From Streptomyces erythrochromogenes (GTDB lineage Bacteria > Actinomycetota > Actinomycetes > Streptomycetales > Streptomycetaceae), in assembly GCF_036170895.1 (NCBI RefSeq), contig NZ_CP108036.1, forward strand, positions 682,001-746,000: a DNA stretch of 64,000 nt. The letters run 5' to 3'. How positions within the stretch are numbered: position 1 is the stretch's first letter; the number at the start of each line of letters is the position of its first letter. A program made the position numbers and the translations under genes. Below, piece after piece: positions 7,060 through 50,087 of the stretch. The notes beneath the pieces were generated by a model. It made no database searches, had not been told where the DNA came from, and was given only the letters and a program-made list of their open reading frames with translations.

Positions 7060-7210
7060 AAGACTCCCGGATGGGCGATTTACCCCCTACGCACGAGTCG
7101 CCCGAATGAGCCCGTCAGGGGCCGGACTTGCCCCTATTGACCCCGAGGGGCCGACCTGCCCCTGAAACCGTGATGTCAGTCACGCGGAACACGTCAACAT
7201 CATTTCCCGC

Positions 7211-7252
7211 AAGAGGCCGATTCCCTTTTCCCGGAAAGGGAATCGGCCTTTT
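7211..7252 (+). terminator. Strong intrinsic terminator hairpin
   Basis: Perfect 14-bp arms GGCCGATTCCCTTT (7215-7228) and AAAGGGAATCGGCC (7235-7248) with a 6-nt loop, followed by TTTT; flanking A/T bases extend the stem. It lies about 200 nt after the DapA-like stop and 180 nt before the LysM gene, so it probably ends upstream transcription. It could also act on a long leader of the LysM gene. Confidence 0.8.
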
Positions 7253-45573: not shown

Positions 45574-46116
45574 ATGCTGAAGCCCACCAGAACCATCCTC
45601 GCTCTCGCCGCAGGAAGCCTGGTTCTCGGTCTGGTCGGGGTGGGCGCCGCCGTCGCGGACGAGGGCCCGCAGGAGATCATCGTCGGCGAGGTGCCCGCGT
45701 CCGCGCAGCCGGGCGAGTACCCGTACGAGAAGTACGCGTTCGGCAAGGTCGTCTCCAAGGGGCCGCTGAAGGTCCGCAGCAAGCCGACCACCGATTCCCG
45801 CGCGATCGGCTACGTGAAGCCGAACAGCAAGGTCGAGATCGAGTGCAAGAAGTACGGTGAGAAGGTCGACGGGAACCGCATCTGGTACCGCCTGCACGTC
45901 GAGCGCGAGGACTGGGAGAACGGCTCCGGCCGTGAGGACCGCGAGGACCGCGAGGACCGCGAGGAGCGCGAGGATCGCGAGGAGCGCCAAGATCGCGAGG
46001 AGCGCCAAGACCGCGAGGAGCGCCAGGAGCCGAACCGCGCGAAGGCCTACGAGAAGGAGCAGTGGGTCTCCGCCCGCTACGTCAAGAACCTCTCCGAGGT
46101 GAAGTACTGCCGCTGA
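45574..46116 (+). CDS. Secreted SH3-like protein with acidic/basic repeat insert
   Basis: A 180-residue exported protein. Signal peptide (TRTILALAAGSLVLGLVGVG, cleaved after AVADE), then a bacterial SH3-like domain (VSKGPLKVRSKPTTDSRAIG, YVKPNSKVEIECKKYGEKVD, WYRL...WVSARYVKNLSEVKYC). The domain is interrupted by ~35 residues of RED/REER/RQD repeats encoded by near-perfect 9-bp units (GAGGACCGC, GAGGAGCGC) at about 45930-46030. The insert should form a charged single alpha-helix. ATG 45574 after GAGGAG. Confidence 0.8.
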   Translation: MLKPTRTILALAAGSLVLGLVGVGAAVADEGPQEIIVGEVPASAQPGEYPYEKYAFGKVVSKGPLKVRSKPTTDSRAIGYVKPNSKVEIECKKYGEKVDGNRIWYRLHVEREDWENGSGREDREDREDREEREDREERQDREERQDREERQEPNRAKAYEKEQWVSARYVKNLSEVKYCR

Positions 46117-46132
46117 CCCCTGGTCGGCACGG

Positions 46133-46489
46133 TCAGCCCACCGGGCGTACGGCACGCGGTCCCACGCACCGCGCACCGTGCGCCCGGACCCGTTCGCGCA
46201 GTTCGCGGTCGGCCGTGACCACGACCACGGAGCAGCCGTCGTGCACACTGGCCGCGGCCAGCTCCACGATCAGGTCGTCACCGCTGCCGGGCGCCTCCTC
46301 GACCCGTACGCCGGGCACGGACCCGACGCCGCGGGCGGCGCCTTCGACGACGAGGACGATCTCCTCGCCGTCGTCCCGGGCGGCCAGCCGGTCGCGCAAC
46401 CGTTCGGCCGCGCCGCGCCGGTCTCGCCACCAGCCGTCCGGCACCGAGCCGACGACGTTCGCGGCATCGACGATCAGCACGTTCCTCAC
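46133..46489 (-). CDS. NYN/PIN-like domain protein (putative RNase)
   Basis: A 118-residue protein with the pattern of a NYN/PIN-like nuclease fold: VLIVDAANVVGSVPDGWWRD (acidic site and strand 1), AARDDGEEIVLVVEGAARGV, PGSGDDLIVELAAA (second acidic pair) and VVVVTADRELRERVRAHGAR. This fold cleaves RNA with metal-bound aspartates, and D8, D72-D73 and D94 (approximate) are in the expected places. GTG 46489 begins 9 bp after the stop of the RNA ligase-kinase gene, so the two form an operon. Streptomycete homologues are sometimes labelled NTP pyrophosphohydrolase; the nuclease reading is my inference. Confidence 0.7.
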   Translation of the reverse strand: MRNVLIVDAANVVGSVPDGWWRDRRGAAERLRDRLAARDDGEEIVLVVEGAARGVGSVPGVRVEEAPGSGDDLIVELAAASVHDGCSVVVVTADRELRERVRAHGARCVGPRAVRPVG

Positions 46490-46498
46490 ACGGGCGCT

Positions 46499-48820
46499 CT
46501 AGAAGTCGCCGTAGTTGACCTGCCAGGTGGGCAGGCCCATGCGGCGCCAGATGGCGACGACCCGGTCGCGGTCGTCCAGCGACACCCGCACCGCGTAGCG
46601 ATGGCGCACGTGCGCGTCGAACAGCTCCGCCTTGACCACGTCGTCGCGGCGCGTGTCCCCCTTCGCGCGCATCCAGAGCTCGTCGTACGGCACCTGGTGG
46701 CGGCGCAGCCAGGACTCGGTCTGCTGCCGGTGCTCCTCGCTGCGGCCCGACAGGAGCACGATGACGTCGCCGTCCGCGCGCCGGAAGGCGTCCAGCGCGT
46801 GCCGCACCGGCTCGTTGAGCAGGTCGAGCTCGCAGCGCGTGAAGTCGTACGGACCCCGGTCGCCGGTCAGTGCGAGCGTGCCGTCGATGTCGCACATCAC
46901 CGCCGCCGGCAGCGCCGGGTCGGGGACGTACGGCGTCACGGGCGGCGCGGCCACCGCGCCCGAAGTCCCGTTCATCCACTCCGCCGTCAGCCGCCAGCCG
47001 CCCTTGCGGGCCTTGCGGTGCTTCTCGTCCAGGATGCGGATGACCTCCTCGCCGACCTGGCGTTCGCGGGCGGCGTCCCGGCGCAGGCACTCCTCCAGCG
47101 GGACGTCGGTGAAGTCGTGCACGACGAAGGTCGCGAGACCGCCGACTGCCGCCTTCAGCCGCTTCGGGATGTTCTTGGTCAGGTGGGTGTTGTCGACGAC
47201 CACGTCGAAACCGCCGTCGACGGCCGCGCGGACGGCCGCGTCCTGGATCGCCAGGACCGTCTGCTCGTGGGCGAAGCTGCGGCCCCGCCCGGGGTCCGGC
47301 AGGTCGAGCATGGCCCGAAGGTCGTCGAGGTTGACGCGGCGCATGCGGCCGCCGGCCTCGGCCTGGAGTGCGCGCGCGGCCGTCGTCTTGCCGGAGGCCG
47401 GCAGACCCGTCATGACGTGGACGACGGGCAGCGGTGCCTCCCGCTCCGCGGGACGGTCGGGCCGGTCCGCCGCCGGCGCCGGGATCCGTGGCGCCGGCTG
47501 CGGGGCGCGGGCGGGCGCGGCGGCGGGCGTCCGCTCGGTCGCGGGCGTCCGCTCGGTCGCGGGCGTCTGCTCGGTCGCGGGCGCGGTCCGGTCGTCCTCC
47601 TCGGACACGGTCCTGTTCTCCTCGTCGGTGATGTACGGGTCGGCGGCGTCCGGCCGGACCTGGCGCCAGGTCGTGAGGTCGGTCGGCCGGCCGTCGAGCC
47701 GCATGAACATCGCGGGCCGGACGGCGCGGTCGGGCAGCTGCGCGACCGCGCGGGCGAAGGCCCCCCGGTCGGCGGTCAGGTGTGCGAGGCCCGCGTAGGC
47801 CTCGTCGATCGCCCGCTCGTGGCGGGCGGCGGCCTGCTCCAGGCCGGCGATGACCCCGCGCACCCAGTGGTCGAACTCGTCGGGCACCTGCTCCAGCAGG
47901 GCGTCGAGCGGCTTTCCGCCCCAGGCGTCGATGTCGGCGACGGTGCAGTTCAGGCCCTGGGCGAGCTGCTTGGCGGGCAGGCCGGCGAAGCGCTGGACGC
48001 CGTGGCCGCGCCAGATGTCCCGCGCGGTCACGCCGGTGAGCACCTTGTGGAGCCGTACGTACTCGGACAGCTTGGCCTTGGCGCGCACGCCGGAGGCGAA
48101 GCGCAGGACGAAGCCCTCCGCGTCCATGCCGTTGGCGGCGGATCCACCGGGCAGGGTGTTGGACTCGGCCAGTGCGAGCAGCTCGTCGAGGGGCATGGCG
48201 GGCCACACCGTGACGACGGAACCGATCCCGTCCCAGTGGGTCGCGGCCTCGGCGAGCGGGACCTCGGTGCCGTCCGTGCGGAAGGCCGCGAGGAGGACGA
48301 GGTCGCGCCGGTCGCCGTAGTCGACGACGATGCGGTTCTGCGGGTAGAGGATCTCCGCGAGGTAGGTGGTGCCCGGGTGCAGGGCCGCGGTGTCCGCGCC
48401 GTCGAGCCGGCGCTGTGCCCAGGTGGCCTGGGCGCTGATGAAGGACCCCTTGGAGGCGACCCGCCAGCGGCCCGCGTAGTGGAAGACGATCGCGAGGCTG
48501 CCGTCGACCTTGTCGTACACCTCGAACGGCTCGTCGGGGAGGGCCGGGGCGTACGGCTGGCCGGACTCGTGCTCGCCGACGTTGAAGAACTTCGGCAGCG
48601 GCAGGGCGACGATCGCGCCGGTCTCGTCGTCGGCGACGAGACCGCGGCAGCGCGTGGTGACCTCGTCCCAGACGCGCTCGTACTGGGCCGTCCGCGTGTA
48701 CGTGTAGATGGACAGCGGCAGCTCGGGGTGCGACTTTCGGGTCACGTACCCGGCGTCGATCGAGTCCGCCAGCGCCTGGGCGGGCAGCAGGTCATGCAGA
48801 GTCAGGGTCTCCTGGCTCAT
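46499..48820 (-). CDS. Trifunctional RNA ligase - polynucleotide kinase - 3'-phosphatase
   Basis: A 773-residue RNA-repair fusion. Residues ~1-260 are a T4 Rnl1-like ligase: motif I YDKVDGSL (adenylated Lys104), RWRVASKGSF, motif IV AEGFVLRF (E235) and motif V KAKLSEY (K248/K250); a helical domain follows to ~395. A disordered ATERTP-repeat linker (405-465) leads to a T4 Pnkp-like kinase with P-loop GLPASGKTT (472-480) and NLDDLR (D499/D500), then a HAD phosphatase with CDIDGTLA (D644, D646) and VIVLLSGRS. The order kinase-phosphatase matches T4 Pnkp. Start ATG 48820 behind GGGAGG. Predicted to heal and seal cleaved RNA in one polypeptide; the next gene is a NYN-type protein. Confidence 0.9.
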   Translation of the reverse strand: MSQETLTLHDLLPAQALADSIDAGYVTRKSHPELPLSIYTYTRTAQYERVWDEVTTRCRGLVADDETGAIVALPLPKFFNVGEHESGQPYAPALPDEPFEVYDKVDGSLAIVFHYAGRWRVASKGSFISAQATWAQRRLDGADTAALHPGTTYLAEILYPQNRIVVDYGDRRDLVLLAAFRTDGTEVPLAEAATHWDGIGSVVTVWPAMPLDELLALAESNTLPGGSAANGMDAEGFVLRFASGVRAKAKLSEYVRLHKVLTGVTARDIWRGHGVQRFAGLPAKQLAQGLNCTVADIDAWGGKPLDALLEQVPDEFDHWVRGVIAGLEQAAARHERAIDEAYAGLAHLTADRGAFARAVAQLPDRAVRPAMFMRLDGRPTDLTTWRQVRPDAADPYITDEENRTVSEEDDRTAPATEQTPATERTPATERTPAAAPARAPQPAPRIPAPAADRPDRPAEREAPLPVVHVMTGLPASGKTTAARALQAEAGGRMRRVNLDDLRAMLDLPDPGRGRSFAHEQTVLAIQDAAVRAAVDGGFDVVVDNTHLTKNIPKRLKAAVGGLATFVVHDFTDVPLEECLRRDAARERQVGEEVIRILDEKHRKARKGGWRLTAEWMNGTSGAVAAPPVTPYVPDPALPAAVMCDIDGTLALTGDRGPYDFTRCELDLLNEPVRHALDAFRRADGDVIVLLSGRSEEHRQQTESWLRRHQVPYDELWMRAKGDTRRDDVVKAELFDAHVRHRYAVRVSLDDRDRVVAIWRRMGLPTWQVNYGDF

Positions 48821-48877
48821 GGGGTCCTCCCGGTTTGAGATGGCTCATTCTCGCCTGCGGGAGGGTGTGCCCGGTAC

Positions 48878-49564
48878 TCAATTATGCCTGGTCGGGGCGC
48901 CTCCCAGGCGGTTGATGTCAGCGGGCCGCAGGATGTGGCCGGGCACCTCGGTGCCGGGAGTGGCGACGGCGATCATGGCGCGGCCGAAGGCCTCGGAGGT
49001 GATGACGAGGTCCGGCGCGAACCGCCGCAGCAGCGGGACCAGCGGTGCGGTGACGGCGTAGAGGACGCGGTAGAGCCGGGTCCTGGACGGGACCCCGCGT
49101 ACCGGCTGGACGATGCCGGGGCGGAACATGTAGGCGCGGAAGGGGAGTTCCAGCAGGTCGTTCTCGGTCTTCCCCTTGACGCGGGCCCACATGGAACGGC
49201 CCCGTCCGGTGCTGTCCGTGCCCTCCCCGGAGACGTAGACGAAGGTCATGCCCGGGTTGGCCGCTGCGAGCGGCCGGGCGACCGCGAGGGTCAGGCCGTG
49301 GGTGACGCGCCGGTAGTCCTCCTCCTTCATGCCGACGGAGGAGGCGCCCAGGCAGAAGAAGCAGGCGTCGTAGGCGGCCGGGTCGACCCCGGCGGCGGAC
49401 AGGTCGGACGGGTCGTCCTGCACCCGCTCGCGCAGCTTGGGGTGGGTGACTCCGAGCGGGGAGCGCCCGATGGCCAGGACGCTGTCGACCGAGTCGTCGC
49501 GCAGGCATTCGCGCAGGACGCCCCGGCCGAGCATCCCGGTCGCGCCGAAGAGGATGACGTTCAC
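48878..49564 (-). CDS. NAD(P)-binding SDR-like oxidoreductase (NmrA/YwnB type)
   Basis: A 228-residue Rossmann protein: NVILFGATGMLGRGVLRECL (GxxGxxG), CFFCLGASSVGM, TFVYVSGEGTDSTGRGRSMW, ARVKGKTENDLLELPFRAYM (YxxxK-like region replaced by KGKTE), FRPGIVQP. Start GTG 49564, no strong ribosome site. It lacks the classic SDR YxxxK, so a dehydratase or redox-sensing role is as likely as dehydrogenase activity. Confidence 0.82.
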   Translation of the reverse strand: MNVILFGATGMLGRGVLRECLRDDSVDSVLAIGRSPLGVTHPKLRERVQDDPSDLSAAGVDPAAYDACFFCLGASSVGMKEEDYRRVTHGLTLAVARPLAAANPGMTFVYVSGEGTDSTGRGRSMWARVKGKTENDLLELPFRAYMFRPGIVQPVRGVPSRTRLYRVLYAVTAPLVPLLRRFAPDLVITSEAFGRAMIAVATPGTEVPGHILRPADINRLGGAPTRHN

Positions 49565-49652
49565 CCGTGGAAGCGTAGGGGCTGTCGGACCTCGGCGCGC
49601 GGGGGCGGGCGGGGCGGGCTGCGCCGTGGGACCCGGCGGAGCCTCGTACGGG

Positions 49653-50087
49653 TCAGTGGGAGACGCAGAGTTCGTTGCCCTGGGGGTCGGCGAGGGTCGT
49701 CCACGTGCTGGGGCCCTGGCGGCCCTCGTGGAGGTGCTTCGCCCCCTTGGCGACGAGGCGCTCGACCAGCTCCTTCGGGTCGTCGTCACCGGTGCGGACG
49801 TCGAGGTGCACCCGGTTCTTGACGGTCTTGGGCTCCTGGACGAGCTGGAAGAGGATGCGCGGCGCGCCTGCCAGGCCCTCGGGGTGGCGGATCGCCGCGC
49901 CCGACTTCCAGACGAGGATGCCGCGGTGGGTGGTGGTGTCGTCCTCGGTCGCGTGCCCCGCCGCGATCAGGCCGCGGATGAACGGCTCGTCGCTGGGCTC
50001 CACTTCCCAGCCGAGGGCGTCGGCCCACCAGTCGGCGAGCGGGTGCGGGTCGGGCGAGTCGATGGTCACCTGGAACGTGTACGCCAT
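49653..50087 (-). CDS. VOC-superfamily (glyoxalase-like) protein
   Basis: A 144-residue vicinal-oxygen-chelate fold protein: VTIDSPDPHPLADWWADALG, WEVEP, NRVHLDVRTGDDDPKELVER, STWTTLADPQGNELCVSH. Start ATG 50087. One of two VOC proteins in this part of the window; dioxygenase, glyoxalase or antibiotic-binding roles are possible. Confidence 0.85.
   Translation of the reverse strand: MAYTFQVTIDSPDPHPLADWWADALGWEVEPSDEPFIRGLIAAGHATEDDTTTHRGILVWKSGAAIRHPEGLAGAPRILFQLVQEPKTVKNRVHLDVRTGDDDPKELVERLVAKGAKHLHEGRQGPSTWTTLADPQGNELCVSH

What the first reader, a model, noticed from the sequence alone, without database searches (positions are those of the whole stretch)
46133..48820. Single-polypeptide RNA ligase-kinase-phosphatase in an operon with a NYN/PIN-like protein
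One 773-residue frame contains, in order, a T4 Rnl1-like ligase (Lys104 motif YDKVDGSL), a T4 Pnkp-like kinase (P-loop 472-480) and a HAD 3'-phosphatase (CDIDGTLA). T4 needs two proteins, Rnl1 and Pnkp, for this job. Nine bp downstream starts a NYN/PIN-like protein, a fold of metal-dependent RNases. Established: Rnl1 and Pnkp jointly repair tRNA cut by anticodon nucleases. Inference: this is a self-contained RNA break-and-repair or RNA-processing unit, possibly answering tRNA-cleaving toxins or phage.
Basis: partly seen in the sequence, partly recalled or inferred. Interest (0 to 1): 0.82.

Follow-up and report, generated by a model that had tools for sequence, protein, structure and literature searches.

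The report
Fused T4-type RNA repair enzyme
A Streptomyces-like bacterium carries, as one recently fused protein, the cut-RNA repair enzymes that its relatives and some phages make from two neighbouring genes; the enzyme type is known, but this fusion and the changing RNA-acting genes beside it are worth testing.

Summary
One 773-residue frame contains a T4 Rnl1-type RNA ligase (1-402), a disordered linker (about 403-460) and a T4 Pnkp-type kinase-phosphatase (464-773), with active-site motifs intact. Nine bp downstream lies a gene with the Rae1/YacP (NYN) fold and intact acids.

Comparison changes the reading. In 71 of 80 loci compared, nearly all Streptomyces, the enzyme is two adjacent genes. 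The fusion (9 of 80) is recent, by loss of the ligase stop, with at least two origins on the tree. Unfused pairs occur in phages and viral contigs, and chromosomal copies nest among those. A single-chain kinase/ligase is already annotated in an iridovirus.

NYN is not a fixed partner. It is in 14 of 16 sampled genomes of the genus, often near dxs, and sits behind the pair in one clade only (29 of 32 rows). In the window's genome its usual place is empty. Two other clades have an RNase H (8 of 8) or a DEAD-box helicase (8 of 10) in that slot.

Best reading: a phage-related healing-and-sealing module that repairs RNA cut by metal-independent ribotoxins, beside the genome's own Pnkp-Hen1. "Self-contained break-and-repair unit" is not supported.

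The parts
46499..48820 (-). fused RNA ligase / polynucleotide kinase / 3'-phosphatase gene, 773 aa, ATG start behind a GGGAGG Shine-Dalgarno-like stretch
47615..48820 (-). T4 Rnl1-type ligase part, aa 1-402, ending DEEN where the unfused relatives have their stop codon
47441..47614 (-). Pro/Ala-rich linker, about aa 403-460, predicted disordered (pLDDT under 50 at 392-457); AGG at aa 403 stands where relatives have TGA
46502..47431 (-). T4 Pnkp-type P-loop kinase (P-loop 472-480) and HAD 3'-phosphatase (D644, D646), aa 464-773
46133..46489 (-). NYN (Rae1/YacP-like, PIN-fold) protein, 118 aa, acids D8, E49, D71, D72, D94 invariant in 29 sequences; clade-specific neighbour

Best explanation
The protein is an RNA end-healing and sealing enzyme. 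The HAD domain removes the 2',3'-cyclic or 3'-phosphate of a broken RNA, the P-loop kinase phosphorylates the 5'-OH, and the Rnl1-type ligase joins the ends through Lys104-AMP; a disordered linker of about 60 residues tethers the two halves. It descends from a two-gene operon shared with phages that became resident in Streptomyces chromosomes, and in the window's clade the stop between the genes was lost. Its likely job is repair of tRNA or other RNA cut by metal-independent ribotoxins from competitors, from toxin systems or during phage attack. The NYN protein is a widespread RNase-like gene of the genus that moved in behind the module in one clade and may be co-expressed with it. Shown by computation: domains, motifs, fold, fusion history, phage kinship, purifying selection. 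Inferred: activity, RNA (tRNA) as substrate, the ribotoxin context, any role of NYN.
For: Domains and motifs. In 35 aligned ligases K104, D106, G107, E156, E235, K248, K250 are invariant; in 35 aligned kinases the P-loop and both HAD aspartates are invariant; each alignment holds 35 of the 80 rows. The kinase part aligns end to end with Pnkp1 4xrp (1.5e-42) and nearly so with T4 Pnkp 1ltq (2.2e-29). Model: mean pLDDT 85.9, pTM 0.50; Foldseek finds Pnkp1 and T4 Pnkp first, then T4 Rnl1 2c5u (1.3e-14) over 411 columns, gaps included, of a 375-residue chain, so the alignment very likely runs into its C-terminal domain. dN/dS of the window against 12 chosen relatives: ligase 0.11-0.37, kinase 0.12-0.27, so both halves are kept. 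Fusion: 9 of 80; a sense codon stands exactly at the TGA position in seven of the nine; at least two changes on the tree. Phage kin: 2,199 phage records match, and in Arthrobacter phage Bauer the ligase and kinase genes overlap by 4 bases. Chromosomal rows nest among viral-contig rows in both gene trees.
Against: No activity, expression or substrate data. T4-type kinases and ligases also act on DNA (general knowledge). The one toxin family sought, PrrC/RloC-like AAA_13, is over its cut-off in 0 of 16 sampled genomes (only part of the first-look candidates was scored, 37 of 52 in the window's genome). The genome already has the standard bacterial repair pair Pnkp (1355 bits, cut-off 750) and Hen1 (681 bits, cut-off 340), so need for a second system is not shown. 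The ligase's C-terminal domain is not matched to T4 Rnl1 by sequence (matches end by about aa 270), and the T4 Rnl1 equivalog cut-off is missed by far (35.9 vs 242 bits). Phage origin rests on midpoint-rooted quick trees with long branches.
Confidence: 0.68

Rival explanations
1. Break-and-repair unit: NYN cuts RNA and the fused enzyme reseals it, as a dedicated processing or splicing-like pair.
For: Same strand, gap 2-561 bp (9 in the window) in all 29 rows that have it; NYN acids intact; in this genome NYN is single-copy and absent from the place it has in other genomes.
Against: NYN in 14 of 16 sampled genomes, ligase in 6; adjacent in 2 of the 5 with both. None of 48 rows outside one clade shows NYN beside the pair (L052 cannot tell); 3 of 32 inside lack it, and L019 keeps only a C-terminal remnant. 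NYN is under weaker constraint here than the enzyme (dN/dS 0.22-0.72 against 10 relatives). PIN/NYN-type products (5'-P, 3'-OH; general knowledge) need no kinase or phosphatase.
Confidence: 0.08
2. Passenger: a captured phage module kept for superinfection or mobile-element conflicts, with neighbours that are chance.
For: Patchy: 6 of 16 in the genus sample; 2 of 60 in the class sample, 0 of the 56 from other genera; flanking genes differ between clades.
Against: Purifying selection on both halves and long residence across a 32-row clade with largely shared flanks; three RNA-acting downstream partners in three clades.
Confidence: 0.14
3. DNA end repair: the enzyme heals 3'-phosphate/5'-OH ends of single-stranded DNA rather than RNA.
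For: T4 Pnkp and Rnl1 accept DNA in vitro (general knowledge).
Against: The ligase is of the Rnl1 family, named for RNA; downstream partners in three clades look RNA-acting (NYN, RNase H, DEAD helicase), though RNase H and helicases also serve DNA metabolism.
Confidence: 0.06

Closest known systems
Phage T4 Pnkp + Rnl1 tRNA repair (PDB 1ltq, 2c5u; two proteins)
   Same: same ligase and kinase-phosphatase families, same chemistry expected
   Different: one polypeptide with a linker, in a bacterial chromosome; ligase C-terminal domain matched by fold only
Single-chain viral kinase/ligase: Iridovirus Liz-CrIV 'putative polynucleotide kinase/ligase' (A0A5B8RI79); baculovirus AcNPV ORF86 (Martins and Shuman 2004, recalled, not seen)
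   Same: one chain; the iridovirus model is the best viral structure match, 823 columns, 6.7e-38, 699 residues
   Different: 18% identity; here the fusion is recent, with unfused sister species, so it arose independently
Actinobacteriophage RNA ligase + polynucleotide kinase gene pairs (Arthrobacter phages Bauer and Seahorse; viral contigs such as L103)
   Same: same two genes, same order, adjacent
   Different: unfused, 38% identity in the best phage records, 62%/72% in viral contig L103
Bacterial Pnkp-Hen1 and Pnkp1-Rnl-Hen1 (PMC4411300: abstract, outline, sections 3 and 5 read)
   Same: bacterial RNA repair; Pnkp1 is the closest solved relative of the kinase part; bacterial Pnkp joins kinase, phosphatase and ligase in one chain
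   Different: no Hen1 beside this gene (the genome's Hen1 is about 1.45 Mb away beside its own Pnkp); the ligase is Rnl1-like
Fungal tRNA ligase Trl1 (9r3w)
   Same: ligase then kinase in one chain
   Different: Trl1 ends in a 2H cyclic phosphodiesterase, not a HAD phosphatase (passages of PMC3400036)
Rae1/YacP (5mq8, 5mq9)
   Same: fold and acidic residues of the NYN neighbour
   Different: 118 aa against 159-174 in the solved chains; ribosome dependence untested

Membership tests
T4 Rnl1 RNA ligase family | nucleotidyltransferase motifs with KxDG lysine, motif IV Glu and motif V Lys pair (motif names recalled) | tested here: met
   Pfam PF09511 over cut-off (57.3 vs 28.3); K104, E235, K248, K250 invariant in 35. 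TIGR02308 equivalog cut-off NOT reached (35.9 vs 242), so a distant member
T4 Rnl1 RNA ligase family | Rnl1-specific C-terminal helical domain | tested here: inconclusive
   fold alignment with 2c5u spans 411 columns, gaps included; no sequence match beyond about aa 270
T4 Pnkp kinase-phosphatase | P-loop kinase followed by HAD DxDGT phosphatase | tested here: met
T4 Pnkp kinase-phosphatase | 5'-kinase and 3'-phosphatase activity on RNA | not testable with these tools
   needs assay
Pnkp1-Rnl-Hen1 repair complex | Rnl related to the bacterial Pnkp ligase, working with Hen1 | tested here: not met
   the ligase is Rnl1-like; the genome's one Hen1 over the cut-off sits at C1:2184076 beside its own Pnkp
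Trl1-type tRNA ligase | C-terminal 2H cyclic phosphodiesterase | tested here: not met
   the C-terminal domain is HAD_PNKP
NYN/YacP (Rae1) RNases | PIN-like fold with conserved acids | tested here: met
   top three PDB matches are Rae1; acids invariant in 29; Pfam NYN_YacP just below cut-off, 24.3 vs 24.6
Conserved ligase-kinase-NYN operon | three-part order kept across relatives | tested here: not met
   29 of 80 rows, one clade; 2 of 5 sampled genomes with both

The most novel reading that the evidence does not exclude
Streptomyces have domesticated a phage T4-type RNA repair pair as a chromosomal shield against RNA-cutting toxins, alongside their Pnkp-Hen1 system. The module recruits a different RNA-acting helper in each lineage into the slot behind it (a Rae1-like NYN nuclease in one clade, an RNase H in another, a DEAD-box helicase in a third), and within one of these clades the enzyme itself fused at least twice into a single healing-and-sealing protein. 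The helpers would unwind, trim or clear broken RNA so that the enzyme can reseal it.
Probability: 0.3. Interest if true: 0.75.

Novelty: new variant of a known kind. Interest (0 to 1): 0.5.

Why it matters
The unfused operon, the operon with an extended kinase N-terminus, and the fusion all survive in near relatives, so one can test directly what joining healing to sealing gains. It also shows T4-type RNA repair as a resident gene in bacterial chromosomes, beside Pnkp-Hen1, and gives a small set of candidate helper genes to test. What these bacteria must repair is open.

Tried and rejected
Considered and rejected: (1) chance domain resemblance: E-values to 1e-78 and fold matches rule it out. 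(2) Fusion as a sequencing error: seen in 9 genomes with different codons at the stop position. (3) Fusion as the ancestral state: 71 of 80 loci are split, including the two longest-branched rows L055 and L033; among viral loci held, 0 of 19 with both genes had them in one frame, i.e. 14 distinct viral contigs and one phage record once four duplicates are removed; in 6 of those 14 contigs and in the phage record the two genes are neighbours. (4) Membership in Pnkp1-Rnl-Hen1 or Trl1: not met. (5) A PrrC/RloC-type nuclease: none over the cut-off in 16 genomes; the control set of 14 genomes had 3 over it; not all candidates were scored. (6) Stop-codon readthrough giving the fused protein in split relatives: only 33 of 71 split loci have both genes in one frame, so not general; not pursued. 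(7) A defence-system label: PADLOC gave only a weak BrxF match, 0.036. (8) Promoter and terminator scan at 45900-49900: nothing found.

Led nowhere: no RNA family over its threshold in the window. Paper searches listed nothing, by title and the start of the abstract, on a streptomycete ligase-kinase fusion; some lists were cut (20 of 21, 15 of 34 and 10 of 113), and most subscription papers are not held. Baculovirus PMC4895240 (passages) speaks of a pnk gene fused to thymidylate kinase, not to a ligase. Other same-strand downstream genes scanned were not RNA-acting: LuxR-type regulator (L022; L025 by similarity), carbonic anhydrase (L028), S11 peptidase (L033), acetyltransferase (L078, further downstream), methyltransferase (L056, 966 bp away), one without family (L069); two upstream genes scanned (L033, L043) were a beta-lactamase-family and a transporter-like protein. 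Opposite-strand downstream genes were not scanned. RNase H relatives are common elsewhere (718 plasmid records match), and L035 has one 6 kb away on the other strand.
Full report
What is there. The minus strand at 46499-48820 encodes one 773-residue protein. Pfam places RNA_lig_T4_1 at 58-243, an AAA_33 P-loop kinase at 467-593 and HAD_PNKP at 638-773; PHROGs gives RNA ligase 22-270 and polynucleotide kinase 467-773. An AlphaFold2 model from 82 sequences has mean pLDDT 85.9, pTM 0.50, two well-folded halves and a stretch under 50 at 392-457. Foldseek ranks Pnkp1 and T4 Pnkp first, then T4 Rnl1 over 411 columns, and further down fungal Trl1. Among viral models the best match is an iridovirus protein named kinase/ligase. 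In 35 aligned relatives K104, D106, G107, E156, E235, K248 and K250 of the ligase and the P-loop and HAD aspartates of the kinase are invariant.

The fusion is recent. A scan of public genomes with this protein reported 119 relatives; the best 80 were kept and 79 distinct loci returned. Of these 76 are titled Streptomyces, one Kitasatospora (L055), one Microtetraspora (L068) and one only Actinobacteria bacterium (L021). The scan favours close relatives, and the remaining 39 were not fetched. With the window that makes 80 rows. In 71 the ligase frame ends in a stop, typically GAC GAG GAG AAC TGA, and the kinase gene begins a few bases later by nearest start codon; in 9 (window, L001, L003, L004, L009, L010, L031, L032, L036) the two are one frame. 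At the stop position the fused genes read AGG (window, L031), GGG (L001), AGC (L009), ACG (L032), CGG (L036) and GCG (L010); L003 and L004 have altered junctions. Close unfused relatives already have kinase frames with in-frame extensions (310-360 aa against about 304 in distant ones), so the steps appear to be: adjacent genes, kinase N-terminal extension, loss of the stop. On a quick tree of 80 rows fusion needs at least two changes, L010 being separate from the other eight. dN/dS between the window and 12 chosen relatives is 0.11-0.37 (ligase) and 0.12-0.27 (kinase), and 0.22-0.72 for NYN in the 10 of them that have it. Of the 71 split loci, 33 have both genes in one frame and 38 do not.

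Phage kinship. tblastn finds 2,199 phage records, 125 with 80% or more of the query covered in one place; the best, Arthrobacter phages Seahorse and Bauer (38% identity), carry ligase and kinase as neighbouring genes, overlapping by 4 bases in Bauer. Viral contigs hold ligases up to 64% identical (468 reported, 80 kept) and adjacent unfused pairs, for example L103 at 62% and 72%. In both gene trees 19 of the 20 chosen chromosomal rows form one group among viral rows (support 96 for the ligase, 92 for the kinase), with the Kitasatospora row elsewhere among viral rows (quick trees, midpoint-rooted, long branches). Five Streptomyces plasmids carry ligase relatives at 50-55% without the kinase. 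In a class-wide sample the ligase is in 2 of 60 genomes, both of the window's genus (2 of 4 of that genus, 0 of 56 others); in the genus sample it is in 6 of 16, and only the window's own is one long frame by the open-frame lengths.

The NYN neighbour. Its model (pLDDT 92.5) matches B. subtilis Rae1/YacP best, and D8, E49, D71, D72 and D94 are invariant in 29 aligned sequences. It follows the pair on the same strand in 29 of 80 rows (28 loci and the window), all in one 32-row clade, with gaps of 2-561 bp; on the tree this needs four changes, such as one gain and three losses. Of the three clade members without it, L019 keeps a C-terminal remnant and L002 and L061 show none. None of the other 48 rows shows it within the DNA held, but L052 has only 66 bases and L034 586 after the kinase. 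In the 16-genome sample NYN is in 14, the ligase in 6, both in 5, adjacent in 2. I fetched 7 of the 14 NYN places: one is adjacent to the pair, and 5 of the other 6 lie near dxs, four of these also near an amino-acid permease. In the window's genome that region is present at 2.09-2.11 Mb with no NYN hit; the LytR-family and permease matches lie about 90 bp apart, and the only NYN copy found is the one in the window. So NYN most simply moved from there to behind the repair gene. That is one event, and noticed after the fact, but it was kept.

Changing partners. The slot behind the pair holds an RNase H gene in 8 of 8 rows of another clade (match starts 55-78 bp after the kinase stop) and a DEAD-box helicase in 8 of 10 rows of a third (match starts 76-235 bp; L052's contig ends, L051 lacks it). 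Other same-strand downstream genes scanned were not RNA-acting (listed under tried and rejected). No background rate was measured, so this is a lead, not a test.

Second repair system. The same genome has the canonical Pnkp (TIGR04075, 1355 bits) next to Hen1 (TIGR04074, 681 bits) at C1:2.18 Mb; 14 of 16 sampled genomes have Hen1 over the cut-off, against 1 of 14 control genomes. The T4-type enzyme is therefore an addition. PrrC/RloC-type AAA_13 is over its cut-off in none of 16, with only part of the candidates scored, so the damaging agent is unknown; other ribotoxin families were not searched.

Mechanism. By T4 precedent (PMC3400036, passages; PMC4411300, abstract, outline and sections 3 and 5) metal-independent ribotoxins leave 5'-OH and 2',3'-cyclic phosphate, Pnkp heals both ends, and Rnl1 seals. 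I infer the same here, with a flexible linker handing the RNA between sites. Names of ligase motifs and T4 residue numbers are recalled; the kinase-phosphatase correspondence is from the alignment. A jumbo-phage survey (PMC7824862, passages) describes polynucleotide kinase fused to HAD phosphatase alongside ATP-grasp RNA ligases, serving repair of host self-attack on tRNA. That NYN domains belong to the metal-dependent PIN-like superfamily with essential acids is from PMC11346440 (passages); the end chemistry of PIN/NYN cleavage is recalled.

Verdict. Observation confirmed; interpretation partly supported. A one-chain kinase/ligase is not new to biology (iridovirus annotation; baculovirus ORF86, recalled), the families are known, and the bacterial fusion with its history and partner changes is a new variant.

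Noticed in passing
L075:8194-8895 and 7 further loci (L034, L071, L073, L074, L076, L077, L078): RNase H gene directly behind the unfused ligase-kinase pair in a whole clade
   Followed up: partly
L043:8286-9704 and 7 further loci (L044, L045, L048, L049, L057, L065, L066): DEAD-box helicase gene directly behind the unfused pair in another clade
   Followed up: partly
L087 (plasmid of Streptomyces sp. NBC_01456): a ligase relative without kinase (53.9%) lies next to a DUF4007 gene with N-6 DNA methylases upstream, possibly a defence island
   Followed up: no
L191 (G000:C1:2180000-2191000): the same genome has a complete Pnkp-Hen1 RNA repair pair
   Followed up: yes
L081 (G000:C1:1190532-1190927): a second, distant match to the phosphatase domain alone (37% identity, open frame of 168 aa)
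   Followed up: no
L062 near 7188-7221: the usual ligase stop is lost but the kinase is in another frame, so the ligase runs a few codons further to a TAG
   Followed up: no
phage record MT836529.1, 5525-5869: a 9.9-kb 'Bacteriophage sp.' record from human faecal samples holds a 59% NYN match, the only one among the phage records; possibly a misassigned bacterial contig
   Followed up: no
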